Translations under genes and position numbers: made by a program
Shown here: one piece after another, positions 2,776-41,793 of the stretch
How positions within the stretch are numbered: position 1 is the first letter of the stretch
Layout of the letters: the number at the start of each line of letters is the position of its first letter
NCBI GenBank assembly: GCA_942159475.1
Contig: OW804097.1
Coordinates: forward strand, 39,320,298-39,384,297
DNA length: 64,000 nt
Reading direction: 5' to 3'
DNA from: Sthenelais limicola
Taxonomy: Eukaryota; Annelida; Polychaeta; Phyllodocida; Sigalionidae
The notes under the pieces: model-generated
Seen by the model: the letters and a program-made list of their open reading frames with translations, nothing else
What the model was told of the DNA's origin: nothing
The model's database searches: none

Positions 2776-4533
2776 ATTCAGTAATTATGCAGCATAATTA
2801 ATGATAATAAAATAAAAAAAAAACATAAAGTGGACTGAGTGTATTTTCATTCGAACTTTATTAAATGTCTTGGCCGTAAAAGAAATACAAAAAAATAAAA
2901 TAAATCAAACTAGATGTTACAGAAAATCTTGAAAATCATGCATAAATTATACACTGGTTTTATATTGAAAGGTTTGACTATTATAAGTCCAGTCTAGCAT
3001 CCTTGTGCCAGGAGGCACTCACTCAATAAGTTATTACTGAGATGACTTATTACTGAGAACCGATTAAACCAATAAACTAATCAAACACAGGCTAAATTCT
3101 TGTTTATATTGTATTTTAAAGTGACACTTGCCGCTGAGCTCCTGATTTTTGGGACATATGCTTGAATTTCAACAATGTTCTAGATCATTATGCCATTAAC
3201 CAATACCTGGGAGCATTAATGTATGAAATACATGTATTTGGAATATATAAGAGTTTAAAACTTCCGGGGGTGCCACCAGCTTGTATCCTCTCAGACATGG
3301 CAGTTGGATGAGGTCCCCACTGCCTGTATACATGCATCTTATCTTAATTAGTTGAGTGATACCAGCTGGATGGGACAGGGTAGTTATGTCACTATGTACC
3401 TCCTGCCTCGCTCCTACTTCACCATGCACTGAGGGCAGCACCTTATGGTCAAGTTACTTCTCTCTCAGATTTGAATTCCCCAATGGAATCTCTGTCACAT
3501 TCTTCATTAACAAATATCAATTAATCTAAGGAATATAATTATGGCATTGGTATTCCACACAAATATCCCTACTTATGCAAGTCATCAAAAACTACAAATA
3601 CATTTTCAAATGACACATAGTCAAAATAGTGATCTTAGCCAATTTATTGAATTATCATAATGTTAATAGCTGTCATTACAAAATCATTCAGGATGGACGT
3701 CGATTTTTTTTCTAGAACATTTTTGCACTTGTTTTTCTAGCTAATTAATAAAAACGTCCATTTAAAGTATTCTCGTGCAAGGACATTAAAAATGTGGTAT
3801 TTTGATGAGCTTAATAGTCTAATGTTATTGTTTGTTCTTGACAGACATCAGATTCTACTTGAGTGACCTTAGTGGCTAGCGTTTAACATTTATACAATTT
3901 TCTGGTTAATATCTTTTATTCGCATGGGTAGTTTTCCACTGGCGATTTTGATGAAATGATCTATAGATTACCTCTTCTGAGCATGGAAAATGGAGGAGTG
4001 CTACAATCAGTCTCACATTCTTTTAGTATCATTTCAATACTAACCCTAGACCACCTCTGTTTGAGCCTTTTTATATGTCAAGATAAGAAGTGTCAATGTA
4101 TCCAAAACAAGTTTTCTCAAAGACAACTAGTAGGCTGGAAGACAGTAATACAGGACTGCAGGAGAGATTTATTCAGTTTTCTTCTTCTTTTAGTCCAAAT
4201 GTCCCCCATTAAAATAAATGAGAGGCAAACTATATGAATGGAAACCTCTGCCCATGGGAAGGAAGTCAATCAAATCAAAGTTGAACCAATTTTAAATATA
4301 GCATCTCGCAGGTAGTACATCTCTGATAGCATTAATCAGTGCTGAATAATAACAATCTGATATAATTGTATATATGGTATTGAACTTATGATCTTGAAAC
4401 CTTAATCAAATTTGAAGCAGAAGATATTAAAACTCATGATTTGACACCAACAATTTTCTATTAATTTTTATACGTTTTGCAGGCTTTAATCGGCAGTGTC
4501 CGTGTCAGAAATTTAAAGCTGGCAGAGCAGAGA
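2776..4533. other. AT-rich stretch without a gene
   Basis: No convincing exon. There are short open frames on both strands, none with motifs or phase-compatible splice sites. The segment precedes the first exon at 4534 and could hold its promoter and 5' untranslated sequence, but I see no clear core promoter element. Confidence 0.5.
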
Positions 4534-6938
4534 ATGGCACCAAAAGGAAAGCTTACATCTGCAGAAAGAGAAAGAAGGTAGGCCTACTGTTTTAGTTAAT
4601 CACATCTGAATACAAGATATATGTGTCCATGGACAAGTATCTGTGGAGATTCATAAGTTGAAATTGTATTTTAAAAATAATTCACAGATATCGTGATCGA
4701 AAGAGGAAAGAGGATCCAACATTCAAGGTAAAAGAAAGTCTCCGGAAACAACTGGCTTATAAGAATCAATCCGAAGAAAAGAAAGCAAGACACCGGGAAA
4801 TGAACAAAATTAATCAACAAAGGTAAGTTTAGTTTCTGGTGAACTCTGATTATATTTGCACTTCCTCAACATTACCTGACCAAATAAATTCTGCCATATA
4901 TATGGCCAATTCCACAAATTTGACAACATTAATTTTGGCCCCCAACCGTGGAAAGTGATAAAATGGGCTTAAATCAAATTAATTACCATTAATTTGATTT
5001 TTTGTTTGATTGGATGGTTCTACCAACCTGTGGAACCACCTTTTTGGCATTTTTAACCCAATTTGTTGTTTTTTTTATTTCAAAATCACATTTTGGGGGC
5101 AAAAATCATTTTTTTAAGTCCCAATAGTCCGTGGAATTCCTAAATTTCTAAATAATCTTCAAAATTGCACATTTTTTTTATATGTTGTGATAGTAGGTTA
5201 CGTGAATATGATCTTTGTAAAAAAAAAACGCAAAAAAAATATTTTTTGGCCAAAAGCCATCAAAATTTAAAAAAAAATAAATGTGGGTACCCCTGGTGAA
5301 GAACTTTAAATTTGATATTTATCATTAATTCTATGCAATAGAAGCCTATAAACATCGAAAATAAGAATTTCCGACTAGGTTTTACTTGCTTATTACAGCA
5401 AAATGTGGTTTTGAAGACTAACGACATATGTGAAGATTAACGACATCTATCAGATCAAAAATGAAGTATCTTCACTGCCGTCTAGCGTAAACGCGTGAAA
5501 CTACCGGAAGTCTTATTGCAGGCGACACTCTGCGTCTAGGCAAACTTTCAGACGTTTTCGACCAACATTTCCTCATATTTGGTAAGTATTTAAGTAAAAA
5601 ATATGTGATTTCCTTGTTGAAACAAAGAGATCTCTTGTTATAGACCACTGTGGTCGAAAGAAAAATGTCCGGGCTAGCAGTAATCATTATGTTTTTTTTT
5701 AAAAATCAGATACGATCAATGACAATGTCACTAGCAACGTAAACACCGCCATACTCCTAGGCCTAATCGTATGTGTGTGTGCTGGGTCGGGGTGAGAGTC
5801 AGGGGCTCAAGGGGGCCCCTTGGGCCCTGAAATATTTTGGACAATATTTAACCTACTTTTCACAATCTGCCCCTCCCACACACGCCCGTCAAAAAGCATT
5901 AGATTGGAACTCCGATATATGTGAATCTATGTAAATTGAAATCTTGAAGACCTAGTCAATGTCCCATATTTTAGATTCAAAATACATATATCACATTAGA
6001 GTACATACTTTATGCCATTATACATCAGTGGGCTACGATAGTTTCATTTTTACATTTCATTTCTAAATTTAATTAATTTTTCTAGTTCGAAAATGGAGAA
6101 AAGAGGACAAAGTGTCGCCAAGGTTGAGGCCAGCAAGAAATATAGGGCCAGAATGACGGCCGAGCAGGACTTAAACTACAAGGCAAAGATAAATGAAAGA
6201 GTGAAGGTAATATACAAAATGATAATAAAAAATAAACTAATAACACAATGATATAAGGAAACATTAAATGTGAACCTCTTTCAAGGTATTTAACCAATAT
6301 GTCGAACAGATGTATAGATTGTAGAAACAAAAACTGTAATGATGCAATGGTAGATAATATTTGTTAAAGTTATGTATGGTATGTATTCTTATATTTAAAA
6401 AAAAAGTCAAAGTAAGTCATGTTAAAACGAGCTGTTGGCACAAAAAAAACCCCAATATGTAATGTAACGTTGGAAATTATTATATGTGGGAGATAATTTA
6501 TACGTATACATTTTTTTGTTTCTACAACCAACTTTATTTCTGAAACCTGCCTTTGGGGCATATCAAATTCTAATAGCATGAATAATCATAAAGAGCATTG
6601 ACCAGAAAAACAGCAAGACATAGGCAAAGTGTTAATATCTCAATATATATGTAAAGGATCCGATTCTTTTTTACCTTTACATAATATAGTCAACCCAAGT
6701 AAAAATTAAAAACATGACTTGCTTTGCTAGGTTTTCTAGCATAAACTAGTTGACTTAAGTGCTTATTTGTTATCTCAGTATTATATAGATGATATTATAA
6801 ACGTACTGATATTTATTTAATTTACATGTATTTCATCATAGCAATTTTATGCATGCAAAAAAGCGCAAATGAGGGAGGCGGAGCTAATGGAAAAGAGGGC
6901 CAAGAAAAATGCCTGGCAGGAGGCAAGACAGAGAAAAG
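4534..6938 (+). CDS. Four exons of a basic, coiled-coil N-terminal region, probably DDE-transposase family
   Basis: Exons 4534-4577, 4688-4822, 6086-6206 and 6842-6938 join in a single frame across three GT-AG introns (donors GTAGGC, GTAAGT, GTAATA; acceptors CACAG, TCTAG, CATAG). The product starts MAPKGKLTSAERERR and continues with YRDRKRKEDPTFKVKESLRKQ, then a second K/R/E-rich block and a third ending ARQRKG; it is strongly basic and predicted helical. The YRDR...FKVK part recurs at 22487-22510 ahead of the second transposase copy, which links these exons to that transposase family. The last exon ends in phase 1 and no following exon is certain; one ending in a stop could start near 8960. 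It may be the start of the gene continued at 17.9 kb, split by later insertions. Confidence 0.5.
4971..5000. repeat. Short palindrome in intron
   Basis: Two 13-bp arms (AAATCAAATTAAT at 4971-4983 and its reverse complement at 4988-5000) are separated by 4 bp. It lies in AT-rich intron sequence; probably a small hairpin or the core of an old inverted-repeat element. Confidence 0.5.
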
Positions 6939-31342: not shown

Positions 31343-31613
31343 TAAGATTTGGTTTGGTTTGGTTAGTTTCACCTCCACTAAGAGTAATTAAAAGTTAGCA
31401 GATATACTGTGGTTTTATTATTTTATTCTGTGAAATTCCCTATTTCATGAAACAGGGTTTGGCCTGACGAAGTCAGGCTTCATTTAGGTTACCTAAATTT
31501 TGTCGTACAATTTGGTTTCCCGTAGGAAATCAAGAATATTTTTGTTCCCAGATTCCCGGAAAATACTCTGCAGTGTCCTGCGATTTTGCAGGAATTTTAT
31601 TCTGTTTCTCTTA
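31343..31613 (-). mobile_element. 3' end remnant of RNase H-type LINE
   Basis: About 270 bp is nearly identical to 39835-40102. It contains the last codons of the LINE (FLQNRRTLQSIFRESGNKN to TKLYDKI, stop at 31493-31495 on the minus strand) and the 3' UTR ending in a repeated CCAAA tail (seen as TTTGGTTTGGTTTGG on plus). Homology stops sharply at 31613. A strongly 5'-truncated insertion of the same subfamily as the copy at 39.8-41.4 kb. Confidence 0.8.
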
Positions 31614-32115: not shown

Positions 32116-32650
32116 TACCGGTGAAATATTAAAGGAGTTACCAGATCATACCTGGAAAGTTTGAGAAATAAATTTATTAAAAAATATATATACCCCCTCC
32201 TGAAACTTCCTAGCAACAGGTGGGACATTAGCATTAGGTTCACTCCCACCTTCGTTCCCATCGGTGCCATCATCTTTGTGGTCCTCAGAGCTCTCCTCTG
32301 CACAACCTGGATTGCATACCAATACTTCTAATTAAGATAGAAAGGTAAGGTTTTCAGCTAAACTAGTGTTTTAGAGGACCAGGAATCCATTTTCAACCGA
32401 ATTAATGGGGTGGAACAATTGCCAACATTTTTTTCAAGATGGCCTTTTCATGTTGCCAGCATCACATGTACGGCTTGGTTAGGGCTACTAACAGGGCTGC
32501 CAACTCTCCGGCATTTGGCCGAAGGCTCTGGCCTTTTGGGGTCCTAAAATTCACCGTCCTAAATCATATAGAGGGAGACTGGCGGGAAAACTCCTAGGAG
32601 GCCAAATGGCGGACTAGGTACGGTGATCATGATACTGAGTATTTTCTGAA
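32116..32650. other. Non-coding stretch before the full-length LINE
   Basis: No gene seen. It may include the LINE 5' UTR; an AAGATGGCC word (YY1-like) lies near 32438-32446. The exact 5' end of the LINE is not resolved. Confidence 0.4.
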
Positions 32651-32777
32651 GGAAGGAGCTATTTAGACCAGCCAGAGAAAGACCACGGCGACATAAATGG
32701 TCATAGCATATTTATACACCAAAATCATATCGTACATATACTTTATCATCGAATTATTGGTGAAAATATATTCAACG

Positions 32778-34408
32778 ATGGCGGGTAGAGACGGTGACAT
32801 TATGGCCGTCGAGGAAAAAGGCGGGCGACCTATCGAAGAAGATGAAGTCGAAAACAGTGCAACTCAAACACCTGAGTTAAACTCTTCCATAGAGATAGAA
32901 GAGGATTCCTCCATCAAAAACAAAACAGGATCTCCAGAAAATGAGGTAATACACCAAAGTGATAACATTGTAAAACAAGAAATAGGGGCTGTCAAAGATC
33001 AGATTGACCCTGGCAAGCCGGCCGGTGGCCATGACACGGCCGAGGTGGATAATATTTCAGAAGCCTCAGAAATAGTTGATAACATTTCAGTAGCCTCAGA
33101 ACTGGCTGATGATACATTGTGTGACGATTGGGATTCAAATCTCAAGGTGAACAAAGCGCTTATTGACAAAATTACTCAAGAAGTCTTAAATAGAATTAGT
33201 AACGAGGGGGAAAAAGAATATATATGGAAAGAAAATCGGAGACTAAACAATGAAAGCTTTCAAACACTCTAGCCTGGACAGAATTAAATTATCGTAACAT
33301 GAATAGAAGACTGAAGGTCATAGAAAGAAATTACAAGCGTGCAGATCAAGTAGAAACAAATTCTGGTGTGTTAGACGAAGAGATAACTGAAGAAACTCAA
33401 ACAGAAAATATGGCGGACAACGGTTTTGTTGATACTGTTGCTATGGACGCCATTGGACAGTTGGATGAGGACATTAACACTTCGGTTTTAGATCTACGTC
33501 AGTCAATATCGGAAAATCTAGAGAAAATAGAATCATTTGGGAGAGAGATGAAATGAGTAGGGGACTCAGTGCAAGCTTTAGATGATAAGCTAAAAGATTA
33601 TGCGCTGAATAATACTAAGAATACAGGTCCTGACATGAAAAGTGACAGCTCGATACATCTTTTGGTCGAAGGCTTGCCGGAAAGGTGGCAACGAGGCTCG
33701 CCGGACCCATGTTTTGTCGATCGAGATGTTATCAAAAATTATCAAATGCTCGCCAACTACTATAAATTATTACGTCTACACAATACCCCGGCCGAGTTGG
33801 TTCTAGGTCATATCCTAGTCGGCGATAGATCATTTGCAACGGCCGACTTGTACAAGCTGCCACAGGGCTGCAGACCGGTAGATGTATCGCATATAACTGT
33901 TGACAAGAAAGGACGGGGATTCCATGGTTCCCACAGCTACTTCTCCAACTTTTACCCTGTATCTGTACTTTATAAGCAGAAAGTTTATCCATCTGCTGAG
34001 CACGCGTATCAGTGTGCTAAAGCGAAACATCTCAACCTACACAGACACGCCTATCATATCTTTCAGGCCCAAAGTCCCGCGCTAGCAAAGAGGAGAGGTA
34101 GCAATCTGGCTTCTGCAGTTACCTCAGAGCAGATGCGCGGCTGGGAAAGCGTAGAGGAAAAGGTTCTCCGAGAAATAGTATTGGAAAAATTTAAGTAACA
34201 TGATGATCTGAGAAAAGAATTATTGGATCCAAATATCAATGGTTTCTTCGAAATTACAGGGGATAGAAAATGGGGATTTGGGAGCGGAGCACGAGGCGTG
34301 CTTATAGCAAATGGCGGCCGTGTTCCGCTTCAGTCAAGGGCATTCACCGGCGACAATAAGTTTGGGAAAATACTCGACAGCATAAGAACCGAGATTCTTC
34401 AACAGTAG
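32778..34408 (+). pseudogene. LINE ORF1: acidic coiled-coil plus NADAR (YbiA-like) N-glycosidase domain
   Basis: The chosen start is ATG 32778 (MAGRDGDIM). An acidic region (32778-33260) and a coiled-coil-like region (33272-33600) precede the NADAR domain at about 33914-34408. NADAR hallmarks are clear: YFSNFYPVSVLYKQKVYPS followed by AEHAYQCAKAKH (conserved Glu), an SPALAKRRG block, MRGWESVEEKVLRE, and the end block DRKWGFGSG with GDNKFGKILDSIR. They stand in the same order and spacing as in bacterial YbiA. Known family activity: hydrolysis of N-glycosidic bonds, in riboflavin intermediates for YbiA and in guanine-linked ADP-ribose for other NADAR proteins. Breaks: a shift near 33270, TGA at 33554 and TAA at 34196 in the middle of NADAR. 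The two stops look like simple substitutions. Confidence 0.8.
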
Positions 34409-34473
34409 GGACAATCTAAATATTGATTAACTGTATCTTCCGACGAGTCAGATATCTGTCTACATGTTATAAA

Positions 34474-35196
34474 ATGGCTTTAAATAGAACCGATCTTATG
34501 GTTCTTGGAGATTCACGAGCGACGGGGCTCGGTCCTATACTCAGAGCAAGGGCTCCAGAGATCGACTCATCTGTGTTTGTTGGTCGAGGTGCAGGCACAA
34601 CAGCTCTTATAGAAAGGGCATCTCACCGTCTAATGATTGAACAACCGAGGGTGTTGTGTATTACAGCCGGCATTTGCAACATAACTTACAGGGACCCAGC
34701 CACCAAGGAGGTAGGCCTGCGATATAACTGTGGTACGTTATTAGCCTTGGACACATATGAATGTCTGGAAAGGGCGAGACAGCGAATCCAACAGATATCA
34801 CCGCACAACCAAGCCCCATCGATAGTAATATTTGGTACCACCTTTGGGGTTGACCTGGTTAAGGACAACTTGTATAATTCTACCAAATCTACAGCTCTAC
34901 AGAAAATTCTTACGTCAAGCAAGCTGGTATCAATTGAAGAAGATCAGGGCATTTTAAATAAACTGATGATAGCGTACAACAATGCCGTAAAAGAGAACAA
35001 CAAATACCATCATGTGCCAACTATATACCTGAGTCAGCTAATCCACATGAGAAGATCGGGAAGGTTCCATCTCACGACGAAACAGCCCACATTTACCAAT
35101 GAATACTTTAAATTGGATGAAGACGGCTGTCATTTGACAGAAACATTAAGGGAAGGGGTAGTACGGCAGATAATCAGGGCTTATGGGAAGATATAG
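34474..35196 (+). CDS. LINE-encoded SGNH/GDSL esterase
   Basis: An intact 240-residue frame from the ATG at 34474 (MALNRTDLMVLGDSRATGLG). SGNH motifs: block I GDS with Ser14, an AGICN block with Asn69 (ITAGICNIT), and a C-terminal D-G-C-H with Asp217 and His220 (LDEDGCHLTETL). The block II Gly may be in GRGAG. The frame also extends upstream to 34423, but the start at 34474 gives the usual spacing to GDS. Esterase domains of this fold are known from ORF1 proteins of CR1-like retrotransposons, where their substrate is uncertain. It lies 65 bp after the NADAR frame in another frame, so it is either a separate ORF or was once joined to it. No stop or shift is seen inside. Confidence 0.75.
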   Translation: MALNRTDLMVLGDSRATGLGPILRARAPEIDSSVFVGRGAGTTALIERASHRLMIEQPRVLCITAGICNITYRDPATKEVGLRYNCGTLLALDTYECLERARQRIQQISPHNQAPSIVIFGTTFGVDLVKDNLYNSTKSTALQKILTSSKLVSIEEDQGILNKLMIAYNNAVKENNKYHHVPTIYLSQLIHMRRSGRFHLTTKQPTFTNEYFKLDEDGCHLTETLREGVVRQIIRAYGKI

Positions 35197-35199
35197 AAG

Positions 35200-35828
35200 G
35201 TTAACACAAATTTGTGATAATTACACAGGCATTTTAAAGTTACAAAATTGCCACATTAAAATAGAGTGTGATTGGAGTGTTCAGTGAGGGAGAGAAGCCA
35301 TTCTGAGCCAGGAGCTTTCGTGAGCCCGATATCCTTATGGTCCCCCCTTTCTCTCACCGAAGACACCAAGATGATATAGGGAACGGGAGTTATCCGGTGA
35401 AATACTTGGCTGATACGCTATAAGTACTGCTATATAGTACATTTACTAGAGTTCTAAGTCTGCGATTGTATTAATATAATCTAATATCTTAGATGTCATG
35501 TTATGAAAGCAGAAAACAATATATTGTTATGACTGCAAATGGGTTAATTAATGTTCCAGATGGTAATTGCTGTGAATGGTGTAAAGCAGCGGTAGCAGAG
35601 AAGTTCTTTATTATTCAAGTGGGAGTCCTTCCTTCCAGGTATACTCGGATAATCATATGTCACTGTTTTAACATATCATGTTATATGACATGAGACACTT
35701 ATTGAGAGGACCTACTATTATGATGGAGATAGGGGTTGATTGTATAGTTAAGTTGTTAGTTGAGACCTATGGTAAGGTATTTGGGGCGTATGGGGGGATG
35801 TCTGTCATTGATATTATATCTGTTTATA
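35200..35828 (+). other. Inter-ORF spacer of the LINE
   Basis: About 630 bp lie between the esterase frame and ORF2. A small frame (35493-35693, NVPDGNCCEWCKAAVAEKFF) has two Cys pairs but no clear family; it may be chance or a remnant of a zinc-finger region. Otherwise nothing is seen. Confidence 0.4.
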
Positions 35829-38739
35829 ATGGGCGAAACAAAGGGACAGGATGAACTGACCACATTTAAAAACCTAAAAGGTTTAAAGATGGTCTCGTGG
35901 AATGTGAGAAGTTTGAGCCAAAAAATTGATGAAATTCGTCATTTTATTATTGAATCTGTTCCGCAAATACTAGTCATACAAGAAACTTGGTTAAATAAAA
36001 CGGTAGGGGACAACGCCCTGTCTGTACAGGACTATGGAACATACCGGTCTGATAGGACAAGGAAAAGGAGAGGAGGGGGTCTGTTAGCTTATGTTCATTC
36101 ATCTTTAGAAATTATTTCAGACAAATATCAAAATTTGTGTGTCAAATGCTGATATAGAAATTCAAATATTTGAAATCGCAAAAAAATACATGAAAAATAA
36201 GATAGTATTTAATGTCTACCGACCCCCGCAAGGCTCCTTGGTAAAAGCACTGGAGATACTGGACTCAGTACTGAACGAGATAGACACATCCAAAGAAATA
36301 GTTATCATGGGGGACTTCAACTATGAAGCTAAAAATATTGAGGAGGGGATGTCGCAAGGGGCTGGTAATTTCAGGAACATATTAAATAAATATTCTCTTC
36401 AACAAATCATACAAGTCCATACCAGGGTAAGTGCAAAATCGGCTTCGACTATAGATCATATCTATACCAACTGTAAAAATGTTGATAAGTCGGGGACCAT
36501 AAATATAAATATTAGCGATCATCTCCCAATCTTTATGCAAATAAAGAAAGAGAGGAATAAGTATAAAGTTGAGACATTCTCTGCGCGGAATACTAAGCAT
36601 TTAGATGTTCCAATTCTAAAAGAGATTCTCAAAAACCAGGATTGGACGGAACTTTATCAAACTAGGGACGTAAATATAGCATGGAAAACTATCTATGATA
36701 GTATAACGAAATTTGTTAACAGGATGTGTCCTATTAAAACGTTCAGAAGGGTCAGGGTTCTACCGGAGTGGTACAATAAAGGTATAATCAATTTAAGTAA
36801 AGATAGGGATAAAGCGTATCGAAAAGCGAAAAGTTCTAATAAGGGTGAAGATTGGAAAAAGGCTAGGGAGTTAAGATGCAGAGTTAATAATGAAATTCAA
36901 AAGGCCAAAGATAGCTACTTAACGAATTACTTACAAGAAAATAAAAATGATCCTCATAAAATATGGGAGGTGCTAAAACCCCTGATGTCGGCTGACAAAG
37001 GGAAAGGTAGTAGTGTTGAAACCATTATTGTTAATGAAAAAGGAGATAAACTGAAAGGGGTCGAGGCGGCCGAAGAGATAAACGATTTCTTTGTTGGTAT
37101 TGGACCCTCGTTGGCCGAAAAAATACCACCTCTTGAAGATGAAGAAAAAGACATAAAAAATATAAATAGGGAAAATTCACCCACTAGGAGTAAATTTGAA
37201 ATTAGTATGATACGTAAAGGTAATGTTGAGGCAGCTCTTTGGCAGGTTGGGAATTATAAAGCGTCAGGCATCGACCTTATGCCTACACGAATATTGAAAC
37301 CCTGTATGGTGGCTTTGAGCGATCAATTCGCTTACTTATATAACTTATCTATTGAAACAGAGGAGATACCAGTTGATTTTAAAGAAGCCAATGTAACCCC
37401 TTTATTTAAAGAGGGTGATAAGAAATTACCGGGAAATTATAGGCCCATTTCATGTATTAAGTTACCCGCAAAAATTTTGGAAAGTTGCATTCAGAGTCAG
37501 TTATCGCATTATTTTGAGTCAAATGATTTAATAGTGGACAACCAATTTGGTTTCAGGAAGGGGAAATCTATAGTAGATGCTCATGACAAATTATTGGGAA
37601 AAATTTATAATAACTTAAATACTAAAAAAGCAACAGATTTGATATTTTTGGACTTTAAAAAAGCTTTCGACACGGTTAATCATAAATTATTATTAAACAA
37701 ATTGAAAAATTATGGGATTGAAGATAAGTTGTTTAGATGGTTTGAGAATTATCTCTCAGGAAGATTTCAAAGAGTGATACTAGATGGAAATTCCTCCTCC
37801 CTGAAACCAGTGACATGTGGAGTCCCTCAGGGAACATCCTTAGGACCTCTTATGTTCAGTATTTATATTAATGATCTATGTGATGTTGTCAAGGAATGCG
37901 ATGTCCAATTATTCGCGGACGATACTGTTATTTTTATAGAAAGATCGCTGGGTTCTCCGAAAATAGATGCTTTACAAGAAGATTTAAACAATATTGTTGG
38001 TTGGTGTGCCCGGAACAAAATATCTCTAAACACTAAGAAGTGTAAAACACTTACTATCAGGGCAAAACATGACCCCAAAAATGATGTTGAATATTCTATT
38101 GGGGTGCAGACTTTAGAAAATGTTGATGCTTATAAATATCTAGGAGTCGAATTAGACAGACAACTCAATTTTAAAAAGTTTATGGTAAAAAAATCAGGAA
38201 TTGTTAGAACTAGGGTGAAAGCTTTATCAAAGCTATACAGAGTATGTACTCAAAGTACCCTTTTATTGCTTTATAAAACAATGATCTTGCCAATCATGGA
38301 CTATGGGGATATCTTATATGGATCGACTACACAAAACCTTTTACAAAAGTTGCAGTCTCTTCAAGAAAATCGGCCTTGAAAATTATACTAAAACTACCGA
38401 AATATACTAATACGAAAGAAATTCATGTTAAATTGAAAATCCCATCTTTAAAAATGAGGCGAGAATCACACATGTTAGAAAGAGCGTTTATTCGGTCACA
38501 ATTTGTAGAAAATATTGACAATAGAAAAGTTAGCCTGCCTGCGAAGGTTAACAGGGGGGAAGAAATTAAAAGTACCTCACCCAAGGAATGAATTGTTTAA
38601 AAAATCGTATGTCTTTGCTCTACCAACTTTGTGGAATCAACTCCCAGATAATATCCAACTTACTGATAATAGGAAGGAATTTAGGAGTTATCTACGCAAT
38701 GTGTATATCAATGAGTTCGACCAATATCTGAAGCTGTAA
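35829..38739 (+). pseudogene. LINE ORF2: AP-like endonuclease and reverse transcriptase
   Basis: The endonuclease (35880-36560) shows VSWNVRSL, VIQETWL (catalytic Glu), VYRPP, IMGDFNYE, and ISDHLPIF (catalytic Asp-His). The linker and reverse transcriptase follow: NYRPISCIKLPAK near 37440, LDFKKAFDTVNH, CGVPQGTSLGPLMF, FADDTVIF near 37912, and KYLGVELD. The C-terminal part ends WNQLPDNI...LRNVYINEFDQYLKL at 38739. No RNase H domain is seen, fitting a CR1/L2-like element. Breaks: a shift near 36135 in the endonuclease, and shifts near 38370 and 38530 in the C-terminal region. The 746-codon frame 36139-38379 is otherwise open. The start at 35829 is chosen because the extension to 35760 is hydrophobic and lacks family similarity. 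Confidence 0.85.
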
Positions 38740-39834: not shown

Positions 39835-39979
39835 TTTGGTTTGGTTTGGTTAGTTTCACCTCCGCTAATAGTAATTAAAAGTTAGCAGATATACTGTGGT
39901 TTTATTATTTTATTCTGTGAAATTCCCTATTTCATGAAACAGGGTTTGACCTGACGAAGTCAGGCTTCATTTAGGTTAC

Positions 39980-40200
39980 CTAAATTTTGTCGTACAATTT
40001 GGTTTCCCGTAGGAAATCAAGAATATTTTTGTTCCCAGATTCCCGGAAAATACTCTGCAGTGTCCTGCGATTTTGCAGGAATTTTATTCTGTTTCTCTTG
40101 GTTGCCTGACAATGTATTAAGAGATGCTCTACACTCAGTTGAGTGTTGCATGTCTGACATACAGGAGCCACTTCACCTTTTAGAAGGTGCCTGTGAGTCA
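39980..40200 (-). pseudogene. LINE C-terminal CCHC-like finger and tail
   Basis: CQTCNTQLSVEHLLIHC gives a Cys-x2-Cys-x7-His-x4-Cys pattern, the usual zinc knuckle after RNase H in such LINEs, followed by KRNRIKFLQNRR and the end TKLYDKI. The last residues are identical to those in the remnant at 31493-31613. Confidence 0.7.
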
Positions 40201-40889
40201 GTTTGGTGTGACCGGTACGAAAGACGGGTCAGTATCACCTGTTCGGGTCTTGTCAGGTTATCATCTTTGAATTTTGGTGTGATTGATGGTGTGATTGCTC
40301 GCAGCTTGTTACTGTTAACACCATTCCATGTGCGCTGCCAGCTACGTTTGACATGTGCCTGCGCCACAGGTACAACGTCTGTGTATGGCATTTGGTCAGC
40401 CCCAACAGGGCGCCTCAATGCATTTTTGGCTGCAATGTCTGCTGCCTCATTTCCTTCTATTCCAATGTGGCTTGGCACCCAGCACAACACCACTGCTTTG
40501 TCCAGTCTTTTGTTTTCAGTGTATGTCTCTTGAATTGCTTGTATGATTGGGTTCTTAGGATAAAGGTTGGTCACAGCTTCTAGACATGGGTGCGAGTCTG
40601 AGAATATGATGAATTTCTTCATCCGTGAGACCTGTACCCATTCAAGTGCCTTAAGCAGTGCTTTTCCTTCAGCAGTGTAGATGCTGCTTTCCTTGTGGAG
40701 AGCCTTCTTCAAGTTCCCAAATGGTGTATGCACGGCAAATCCAGCACGACTACCATCTTTGGAACCATCAGTGAAAATGGCTGTATGGCTCTCAAACTGT
40801 GTCCTGATTTCACTGTATTGTTTTTCAAATACATGCACAGGAGTCTCAGTTTTAGGTCCAGGATAACCAGGGGTAATTTTTGTTCCCAT
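40173..40889 (-). pseudogene. LINE RNase H domain
   Basis: RNase H type I residues are visible: Asp in IFTDGSKDGSRAGFAV, Glu in IYTAEGKALLKALEW, Asp in IIFSDSHPCLEAV and Asp in PSHIGIEGNEAADIAAK, i.e. the complete D-E-D-D set. This domain removes the RNA strand during target-primed reverse transcription. A one-base shift near 40220 leaves the downstream piece in another frame (HRHLLKGE-VAPVCQTC). The first part of the frame overlaps the reverse transcriptase frame because of an upstream shift. Confidence 0.8.
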
Positions 40890-41424
40890 GATGGAGTCTC
40901 TGGTGGTTTTTCAGTCATTACTCTTTTCATTGGTACACCAGCTTCTTGGAATAAAGACCTTGCTTTCACTGCCATTGGCTTGATGGCATTTGGCTTCTCC
41001 CGATACACAGTGTTCTTGTTGTCAAATATGAGTTTGTGGGCTGGATTTTTGGGGTTAGCTCTGACACGTATAGTGTATTGCAGTGTGAGCTTTTCCCGGC
41101 GAAACTCCAGAGGTGGTATACCAGCTTCAATATGAAGGCTTGGTGCAGGAGTTGTACGTAAGGCTCCAAGACAAAGTCTCAGTCCCTGGTTCTGAATGGG
41201 CTTAAGTCTGTCCAGGTAAGACCTTGGAGCAGAGGCATACACCATAGATCCATAGTCTAACCTTGATTGGATATACATTTTGTACAATGTCAGCAAGGTC
41301 TCTTTGTTACAACCCCAGTTGGGGTGACTGAGGACCTTCAGCAGGTTCATTGCCTTCTGGCATTTCCTCCGGAGGTATTCAATGTGTGGTTTGAAGGAAA
41401 GAATCATGTTGGAGGTATATATAC
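40709..41424 (-). pseudogene. Reverse transcriptase C-terminal region of RNase H LINE
   Basis: The frame contains LSFKPHIEYLRRKCQKAMNL, LLTLYKMYIQSRLDYGSMVY and IQNQGLRLCLGALRTTPAPS, the standard thumb-region blocks after the polymerase core. It then runs into a region out of frame with the RNase H domain; a shift lies near 40820-40890. The polymerase core itself is absent, so the element is 5' truncated. Confidence 0.75.
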
Positions 41425-41793
41425 TGTTATACGTAGTGTAACACAAGGAAAAGGAGCTGTAGCGTAGAGTGTAGTAGCGTAGCTTTTTTTAAAAGGCACC
41501 AGAATCGATGGTTCTCTACCAATATGTTATACGTAGTGTAACACAAGGAAAAGGAGCTGTAGCGTAGAGTGTAGTAGCGTAGCTTTATTGTACGATCTTA
41601 AGTGAAGTTAGGGGTTCACAACCCTTCATTATATCCTAGGGGGACACCGTGCACGCAGGCAGGTGCTCCCTGATTGGGCGGCGGTGGCGCCCAATCAATA
41701 TCGAGATAAATATCAGTTGGGCTTGACCCCTCGGACAGGTAACATGTATGTAAGAAAATAAAATTTTAGGGTATGTTACCACGAGGTATAACA
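41425..41793 (+). mobile_element. Solo LTR (369 bp) with duplicated 5' segment and ATAC target duplication
   Basis: Starts TGTTATAC and ends GTATAACA, an exact 8-bp inverted pair with TG...CA ends. It is flanked by a 4-bp direct repeat ATAC (41421-41424 and 41794-41797). The first ~65 bp (from TGTTATACGTAGTGTAACAC to GTAGTAGCGTAGCTTT) recur exactly 100 bp later at 41525. A perfect hairpin GATTGGGCG...CGCCCAATC lies at about 41676-41700 and an AATAAAA signal near 41757. It inserted at the edge of, or into, the minus-strand LINE ending at 41424. Confidence 0.7.

What the first reader, a model, noticed from the sequence alone, without database searches (positions are those of the whole stretch)
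33914..34408. A NADAR (YbiA-type) N-glycosidase domain inside a LINE ORF1
The protein blocks YFSNFYP...YPSAEHAYQ, SPALAKRRG, RGWESVEEKVLRE and DRKWGFG...GDNKFGKIL match the full NADAR order, including the conserved Glu and Trp. It lies in the same orientation, 66 bp before an SGNH esterase frame and 1.4 kb before endonuclease/RT, so it belongs to the retrotransposon. NADAR enzymes cleave N-glycosidic bonds, and some reverse guanine ADP-ribosylation in DNA. Inference: the element may use it to remove host or stress-induced ADP-ribose from its nucleic acid, or to alter NAD-derived signals at integration. I do not know of NADAR as a standard LINE ORF1 domain.
Basis: partly seen in the sequence, partly recalled or inferred. 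Interest (0 to 1): 0.88.

Follow-up and report, generated by a model that had tools for sequence, protein, structure and literature searches.

The report
ADP-ribose-eraser domain inside LINE retrotransposons
This jumping gene carries, in its probable RNA-binding protein, an enzyme domain of a type known to strip ADP-ribose from RNA and DNA bases; the same genome holds many relatives that keep it intact and under selection, so it looks like a working part of the element that may counter an unknown host defence.

Summary
The finding is real. Window 33929-34396 encodes a YbiA-type NADAR domain (Pfam E 4.8e-22 with one stop read as X; fold matches YbiA and ADP-ribose-bound Phytophthora NADAR). It sits in ORF1 of a non-LTR retrotransposon (about 32581 to at least 38739), before a separate SGNH-like ORF and EN-RT. 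The window copy is dead (deletion, frame breaks, stops); two near-identical C5 copies (93-96%) keep ORF1 open for 676 aa. In the 1.13-Gb genome 5,561 first-look candidates exist; all 150 scored pass the cut-off, 148 without internal stop. EN-RT follows in 19 of 20 hand-picked loci. SGNH lies 42-170 bp behind NADAR in 92 of 150, none in wrong order or strand. NADAR dN/dS: 0.03-0.04 in three pairs, 0.06-0.26 in six pairs of the window's lineage. In 19 LINE NADARs the catalytic Glu pair is invariant, Lys is K/R. Prior print: one sentence on oyster 'Tx1' ORF1s, plus algal Gypsy. Best mechanism: an ORF1p-borne eraser of guanine ADP-ribosylation. Function is inferred; no host writer was found (two Pfam searches, one inconclusive).

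The parts
32581..38739 (+). Retrotransposon body: 5' edge of homology to the end of the ORF2 reading. The 3' terminus was not resolved.
   Evidence: Homology to both C5 copies starts exactly at 32581; these two copies lie 41 kb apart and align alike, so they may be one insertion that was duplicated. ORF2 end read by eye. The C5 copy stops matching after window 38295.
32778..33272 (+). ORF1, N-terminal part (first open piece, from a likely ATG)
   Evidence: Open frame; 32784-33272 is 89% identical to the N-terminus of the 676-aa ORF1 of L031
33254..33556 (+). ORF1, second open piece, ends in TGA 33554-33556
   Evidence: same frame as NADAR
33728..33733 (+). Deletion junction: about 253 bp present in the C5 copies is missing here (most of the RRM-like part)
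   Evidence: Homology stops at 33728 and resumes at 33733, with about 253 bp more in the C5 copies
33929..34396 (+). NADAR domain (PF08719), interrupted by TAA 34196-34198
   Evidence: catalytic columns of relatives, window row
34474..35196 (+). SGNH/GDSL-like ORF (240 aa, intact), separate from ORF1
   Evidence: Open frame; invariant D13 S14 R15 and D217, H220 in 9 aligned members. Family support weak: Lipase_GDSL_2 E 0.0055 in 1 of 9, PDB GDSL-like lipase E 0.83
35829..36152 (+). ORF2 start region, N-terminal part of the AP-like endonuclease
   Evidence: Exo_endo_phos E 2e-5 in open frame 35760-36152
36109..38379 (+). ORF2 main piece: endonuclease C-terminal part and reverse transcriptase (RT about 37420-38154)
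   Evidence: Exo_endo_phos_2 E 1.8e-12, RVT_1 E 3.6e-40; human L1 ORF2p E 1.9e-14

Best explanation
The NADAR domain is a fixed, selected module of ORF1p in a large radiation of non-LTR retrotransposons in this genome (shown; about 0.97). ORF1p joins a coiled coil and an RRM/CTD-like RNA-binding part, as in L1 ORF1p, to a YbiA-family NADAR (the RNA-binding part is inferred from a weak profile match and sequence pattern). Most likely ORF1p coats the element's RNA and uses NADAR as a built-in eraser that hydrolyses ADP-ribose from guanine bases of that RNA, and possibly of the cDNA or nicked target. That would protect reverse transcription from a host or environmental guanine ADP-ribosyltransferase (inferred; about 0.5 for a catalytic nucleic-acid eraser). 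The adjacent SGNH-like product would act in the same particle, perhaps at membranes as proposed for other LINE esterases (inference).
For: Domain and fold. Multi-copy with open frames: 148 of the 150 scored matches have no internal stop (my count); 131 of 150 in the window-type list (my count); both lists hold only the best-scoring 150. Order NADAR-(SGNH)-EN-RT: 19 of 20 hand-picked 10-kb loci have EN-RT downstream. SGNH lies 42-170 bp behind NADAR in 92 of 150, with 0 in wrong order or strand. NADAR lies 2.5-5.4 kb before the RT-domain match in 37 of 89; controls for the first 150 NADARs 0 of 89. Selection: NADAR dN/dS 0.04, 0.04, 0.03 in three diverged pairs, ORF2 0.07, 0.07 in two; NADAR dN below ORF2 dN in 14 of 14 diverged pairs, which share loci and are not independent. 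Catalysis: equivalents of E43, E125 and the conserved W in 19 of 19 LINE NADARs, and of the lysine K in 13 and R in 6. Residue roles are from PMC11543638 passages. I placed them through 8bau, assuming a constant offset of 2, and the lysine by its +7 spacing. RNA-binding half: the A1 profile hits L1 ORF1p 2ykp over positions 98-218 (E 0.049). Biochemistry: NADARs are reported as the only hydrolase family reversing guanosine-RNA ADP-ribosylation (PMC11833690 passages). NADAR and ORF2 trees of 15 loci recover the same three clades.
Against: No guanine ADP-ribosyltransferase was found in the host: Scabin-like PF22596 0 matches (no control rang, so inconclusive), DarT PF14487 0 matches (one control rang). 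Searches were exon-wise; PARP did not complete. No activity was measured. In 6 of 19 LINE NADARs the lysine is arginine, which may lower efficiency. 52 of 89 RT matches had no listed NADAR upstream (capped lists). The one of these I checked, C5:119169841, has satellite DNA and only a short opposite-strand NADAR-like piece 2.2-4.2 kb upstream. The L1 ORF1p match is weak; it was absent with profile A4, which lacks the coiled coil; none of six ORF1s had a Pfam RRM or Transposase_22 hit. In the window's lineage NADAR is no more conserved than the RRM-CTD part. ORF1 NADARs also pass the NCBIfam riboflavin N-glycosidase model. YbiA and phage NADARs with in-vitro activity did not protect cells from DarT1 (PMC11125620 section 2.1), so in-vitro activity need not reveal the biological substrate.
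Confidence: 0.55

Rival explanations
1. NADAR acts on small NAD-derived molecules (ADP-ribose derivatives, cyclic ADPR or riboflavin intermediates), damping a host stress or immune signal during retrotransposition.
For: NADARs are described as acting on riboflavin intermediates, and phage NADARs were proposed to target soluble ADP-ribose derivatives (PMC9503650 passages). Two of two LINE ORF1s tested pass the NCBIfam riboflavin N-glycosidase cut-off (E 9.8e-32 and 6.8e-32).
Against: The domain is fused to a coiled-coil, probably RNA-binding protein. [quoted passage not shown]
Confidence: 0.2
2. NADAR is a binding module in ORF1p, for example for ADP-ribosylated proteins or RNA at the target site, with no needed hydrolysis.
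For: Function unmeasured; K to R in 6 of 19.
Against: Both glutamates and the tryptophan are invariant in 19 of 19, although NADARs of other lineages are only 25-33% identical to the window's. dN/dS is 0.03-0.04 in three pairs.
Confidence: 0.15
3. NADAR removes NAD-type or ADP-ribose caps from RNA ends rather than from bases.
For: NADAR families have been associated with RNA processing (PMC9503650, PMC9303266 passages).
Against: NADARs tested could not process phosphate-end RNA ADP-ribosylation (PMC11833690 passages).
Confidence: 0.08
4. The NADAR piece is a host gene or other element next to LINE fragments by chance.
For: The window copy is broken and lies among repeats.
Against: Same order and spacing in many copies on several contigs, with 0 in the controls.
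Confidence: 0.01

Closest known systems
'Tx1' LINE ORF1s of Crassostrea gigas with NADAR (one sentence in PMC12477816, section 5)
   Same: A YbiA-family NADAR in a LINE ORF1.
   Different: The passage gives no anatomy, selection or copy analysis of the oyster elements (its supplement was not seen). The RTs here carry CR1/Jockey-like motifs (recalled, not tested against references). Whether the oyster elements are the same lineage could not be tested.
Ectocarpus Gypsy Pol with NADAR (PMC12477816)
   Same: A NADAR domain captured by a retrotransposon.
Type II LINE ORF1 (coiled coil-RRM-CTD; L1, CR1, L2, R1 clades; PMC4120745 passages)
   Same: Coiled coil then RRM-like part, supported by the weak 2ykp match.
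   Different: NADAR is added; that paper's main text has no mention of NADAR or DUF1768.
Esterase ORF1 of CR1/L2 elements (ZfL2-1; PMC3905857 passages)
   Same: An SGNH-like catalytic set encoded before EN-RT in a LINE.
   Different: Here the SGNH-like protein is a separate ORF behind NADAR and only weakly matches GDSL models.
NADAR/YbiA enzymes (8bau, 2b3w)
   Same: Fold and the Glu, Lys, Glu and Trp positions.
   Different: Not retrotransposon proteins.

Membership tests
NADAR superfamily, YbiA subfamily | Match above the curated Pfam score | tested here: met
   45.8 bits in the open window piece, cut-off 35.1; 79.4 with the stop read as X
NADAR superfamily, YbiA subfamily | NADAR fold | tested here: met
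   Model pLDDT 83.3; 2b3w E 5.3e-6, 8bau E 5.7e-4
NADAR superfamily, YbiA subfamily | Glutamate (not Asp or His) at the E125 position of the last strand | tested here: met
   E in 19 of 19 LINE NADARs and in the window row; definition from PMC11543638 and PMC11125620 passages; position placed through 8bau by inference
NADAR superfamily, YbiA subfamily | Guanine-ADP-ribose hydrolase activity | not testable with these tools
   Needs enzyme assay
Non-LTR retrotransposon (LINE) with AP-like endonuclease | EN and RT in one ORF2 | tested here: met
   L010 ORF2 carries both; window has both, with a frame break; ORF2 frames of 900-1000 aa in many copies
Non-LTR retrotransposon (LINE) with AP-like endonuclease | Target-site duplication and 3' tail | not tested
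   The 3' end was not resolved
Type II ORF1 (coiled coil-RRM-CTD) | Similarity to L1 ORF1p over coiled coil and RRM | tested here: inconclusive
   2ykp E 0.049 over profile 98-218 with A1; no such hit with A4, which lacks the coiled coil; no Pfam RRM or Transposase_22 hit in six ORF1s
SGNH/GDSL esterase | Catalytic Ser and Asp-x-x-His; family profile | tested here: inconclusive
   DSR and DxxH invariant in 9 of 9; profile support weak; fold model too poor, pLDDT 35.3
Tx1 clade | RT placed in Tx1 by a reference tree | not testable with these tools
   No reference LINE RTs of the clades were held; motifs look CR1/Jockey-like (recalled)

The most novel reading that the evidence does not exclude
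LINE ORF1p in this lineage is an RNA chaperone fused to a guanine-ADP-ribose eraser. This would be a retrotransposon counter-defence and would imply an undescribed host pathway that ADP-ribosylates guanine in retrotransposon RNA or cDNA in invertebrates.
Probability: 0.3. Interest if true: 0.93.

Novelty: new variant of a known kind. Interest (0 to 1): 0.78.

Why it matters
A 2013 structural paper called esterase ORF1ps unique among ORF1ps in having an enzymatic function (PMC3905857 passage). A second, conserved enzyme in ORF1p would be a new tool of retrotransposons. [quoted passage not shown] A multi-copy, often intact and selected family makes that question directly testable: what does ADP-ribosylation do to retrotransposon RNA, and who writes it?

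Tried and rejected
Protein database: three searches. Two with longer ORF1 pieces found nothing (at E <= 0.001; at E <= 10). The NADAR domain alone found 3 NADAR proteins of unstated organism, 31-33% identical; they are labelled '_bact' in my tree without proof.

Viral and prokaryote collections: viral contigs gave one NADAR locus (L001), no RT relative and no A4 relative; genome contigs gave none.

LTR idea: the 265-bp direct repeat flanking the element (31348-31612 and 39835-40099, 98.9%) looked like LTRs. It reads as the 3' end of a second, minus-strand LINE (frames, sequence; identified by eye, no family search), so this was rejected.

SGNH fold: the single-sequence model is too poor to use (pLDDT 35.3).

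Host identity: the haemocyanin model PF14830 gave 0 matches, with no control ringing. The host is not identified; I call it a probable animal by inference only.

Host writer enzyme: PF22596 and PF14487 gave no match.

One evolutionary origin for all LINE NADARs: the tree backbone is unresolved, so neither one capture nor several can be claimed. Rows dropped before that tree: L042 (near-copy of L047), several near-copies among L010-L029, and L053, where the record splits NADAR into two overlapping genes.

dN/dS limits: most between-family pairs are saturated at synonymous sites. In the window's lineage only 6 of 21 NADAR pairs gave a value (0.06-0.26).

Full report
OBSERVATION. The reported blocks are in the sequence at the stated place. 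The open piece 33557-34198 alone passes Pfam's NADAR cut-off (45.8 bits against 35.1). With the in-frame TAA read as X the domain scores 79.4 bits, E 4.8e-22, profile positions 9-162 of 163. The closest solved sequence is YbiA (E 2.7e-9). A model of the domain (pLDDT 83.3) has two matches at E <= 0.001: YbiA and Phytophthora NADAR bound to ADP-ribose.

THE ELEMENT. Around it lie an ORF1 N-terminal part (32778-33272, then 33254-33556), the NADAR, a 240-aa intact SGNH-like ORF (34474-35196) and EN-RT pieces (35829-36152, 36109-38379, reading to about 38739). Two copies on contig C5 (C5:6053945 and C5:6095151) match at about 93% (5' part) and 96% (3' part) and start at exactly window 32581. Both keep ORF1 open for 676 aa with NADAR; the SGNH frame is open in one and has a TGA in the other. 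They lie 41 kb apart and align alike, so they may be one insertion that was duplicated. Against them the window copy has lost about 253 bp between 33728 and 33733, which removes most of the RRM-like part, and it has stops at 33554-33556 and 34196-34198. The window element is therefore a damaged member of a family with open copies.

IT IS A FAMILY, NOT A HOST GENE. The whole-genome search found 5,561 first-look NADAR candidates (unconfirmed). 150 were scored: 150 of 150 pass the cut-off, and 148 of 150 have no stop inside (my count). Being the best-scoring ones, they favour intact copies. In the list made with the window's own NADAR, 131 of 150 have no stop inside (my count). EN-RT lies downstream on the same strand in 19 of 20; the exception, L028, sits beside a polymerase-like fragment. 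A SGNH-like frame lies between in 11 of those 19 by tblastn, 12 with L016 by alignment. L013, L024 and the five loci of clade A (L010, L015, L017, L020, L022) gave no hit. For the window's own type, SGNH starts 42-170 bp behind NADAR in 92 of 150 NADAR matches (median 74), with 0 in the reversed order and 0 on the opposite strand. NADAR lies 2.5-5.4 kb before the RT-domain match in 37 of 89 (29 of 89 with the first NADAR list, with 0 in both controls). The NADAR and SGNH lists are capped at 150, so the fractions are lower bounds. Of the 52 RTs without a listed NADAR one was checked: it has satellite DNA and a short opposite-strand NADAR-like piece upstream.

ANATOMY OF ORF1. In 14 aligned ORF1s, 23 of the 24 invariant columns fall inside the Pfam NADAR stretch of L014 (275-420). 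A coiled-coil region and an RRM-like region precede it. The profile matches L1 ORF1p (2ykp) over both, but weakly (E 0.049), and NADAR 8bau at 1.5e-24. A profile of the window's lineage without the coiled coil (A4) did not match L1 ORF1p, and six ORF1s gave no Pfam RRM hit. The RRM assignment therefore rests on weak evidence and sequence pattern. In the clade A-D ORF1s shown, a long low-complexity tail follows NADAR; in the window's lineage the ORF1s shown with intact ends stop right after it.

SELECTION AND CATALYSIS. dN/dS for NADAR is 0.04 (L010-L015), 0.04 (L023-L026) and 0.03 (L013-L025), against 0.07 and 0.07 for ORF2 in the first two pairs. Across the 15 diverged pairs (of 19 examined; 4 near-identical pairs set aside) NADAR has the lowest dN within ORF1 in 15 of 15, and lower dN than ORF2 in 14 of 14 with ORF2; the pairs share loci. 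In the window's lineage 6 of 21 pairs gave values, 0.06-0.26, and NADAR is about as conserved as the RRM-CTD part. In 19 LINE NADARs the equivalents of E43, E125 and the conserved W are present in 19 of 19, and that of the lysine is K in 13 and R in 6. Residue roles come from PMC11543638 passages. I placed E43 and E125 through the 8bau alignment, where they fall at chain positions 45 and 127, and the lysine by its +7 spacing; this placing is inference. The aspartate three before W is kept in 14 of 19. The window row has E, K, E, D and W.

PHYLOGENY. Trees of NADAR and of ORF2 for 15 loci recover the same three multi-member clades; clade A has only moderate support in the NADAR tree (92/91). 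With 10 other NADARs added, the window's lineage (7 rows) is a clade at 100/100 and clade C at 100/99. Clades A and B with row D_L019 group at only 84/79, and the backbone is open. One or several captures cannot be decided.

MECHANISM. NADARs hydrolyse guanine-linked ADP-ribose in DNA (PMC11543638 passages, PMC11125620 passages and section 2.1) and are reported as the only hydrolase family that does so on guanosine in RNA (PMC11833690 passages). Putting such a domain on a probable RNA-binding coiled-coil protein gives a self-carried eraser for the element's RNA and perhaps cDNA. This is inference. Positive-strand RNA viruses of invertebrates carry NADARs, including annelid and bivalve picornaviruses, and those authors propose that they target host ADP-ribosylation (PMC9503650 passages); this is a parallel. 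The missing piece is the writer. Shellfish and butterflies have guanine-specific ADP-ribosyltransferases (CARP-1, pierisins; PMC11543638 passages), but Scabin-like PF22596 gave no match here (inconclusive) and DarT none.

WHAT IS KNOWN. Searches of the open PMC library for NADAR with retrotransposon (104 papers, 20 listed), 'NADAR domain' (one listed, passages read in 5), YbiA with LINE and ORF1 (one paper) and NADAR with LINE and Mollusca (one listed) showed one relevant paper, PMC12477816. Its section 5 (part 1 of 2 read) reports NADAR in an Ectocarpus Gypsy lineage and, in one sentence, in ORF1 of several oyster Tx1 families. PMC4120745, on Jockey-superfamily ORF1 types, does not mention NADAR or DUF1768 in its main text. 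The combination described here - ORF1 with NADAR, separate SGNH-like ORF and EN-RT, in many selected families - was not seen in those searches; most subscription papers, supplements and Repbase were not searchable. The RT clade is not tested: the RTs carry motifs I recall as CR1/Jockey-like, and the best solved matches are L1 and R2.

VERDICT. Observation confirmed; membership in the retrotransposon shown; enzymatic competence likely from residues; biological role inferred. New variant of a known kind, interest 0.78.

Noticed in passing
window 39835-41488 (-) and 31348-31612: A second LINE on the minus strand (RT and RNase H-like frames by eye, no family search) with a 98.9% identical truncated copy on the other side of the NADAR element; both end in CCAAA-type repeats.
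   Followed up: partly
L028 (C1:94848180-94858179); similar 162-aa frames at C1:89380390 and C1:66983187 (not fetched): A NADAR frame next to sequence that looks like a Maverick/Polinton-type polymerase fragment (family recalled, no Pfam hit). NADAR may also ride in virus-like DNA elements of this genome.
   Followed up: partly
window 35197-35828 and matching spacers in other loci: A spacer of several hundred bp without a conserved ORF noticed between SGNH and EN-RT; its role is unexplained.
   Followed up: no
L010, L015, L017, L020, L022: One clade of NADAR LINEs gave no SGNH hit by tblastn with the window protein; the SGNH-like ORF was lost there, gained elsewhere, or is too diverged.
   Followed up: partly
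L029 oriented 4379-5635: A 419-aa open frame, hydrophobic by eye, between SGNH and EN-RT; it may be chance or a membrane protein.
   Followed up: no
L044 (NADAR at 1913-1434 and at 2860-2399, minus strand): Two NADAR-SGNH pieces in tandem (NADARs 54% and 37% identical to the window); probably one element inserted next to or into another.
   Followed up: no
L050 (C5:119165600-119167600): A long tandem satellite (seen by eye in the translation) upstream of an RT copy that has an open 997-aa frame.
   Followed up: no
L046, L047, L049 NADAR; L040, L022: The aspartate three before the conserved Trp is Ser in L046, L047 and L049 and Asn in L040 and L022, which may mark a different substrate preference.
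   Followed up: partly
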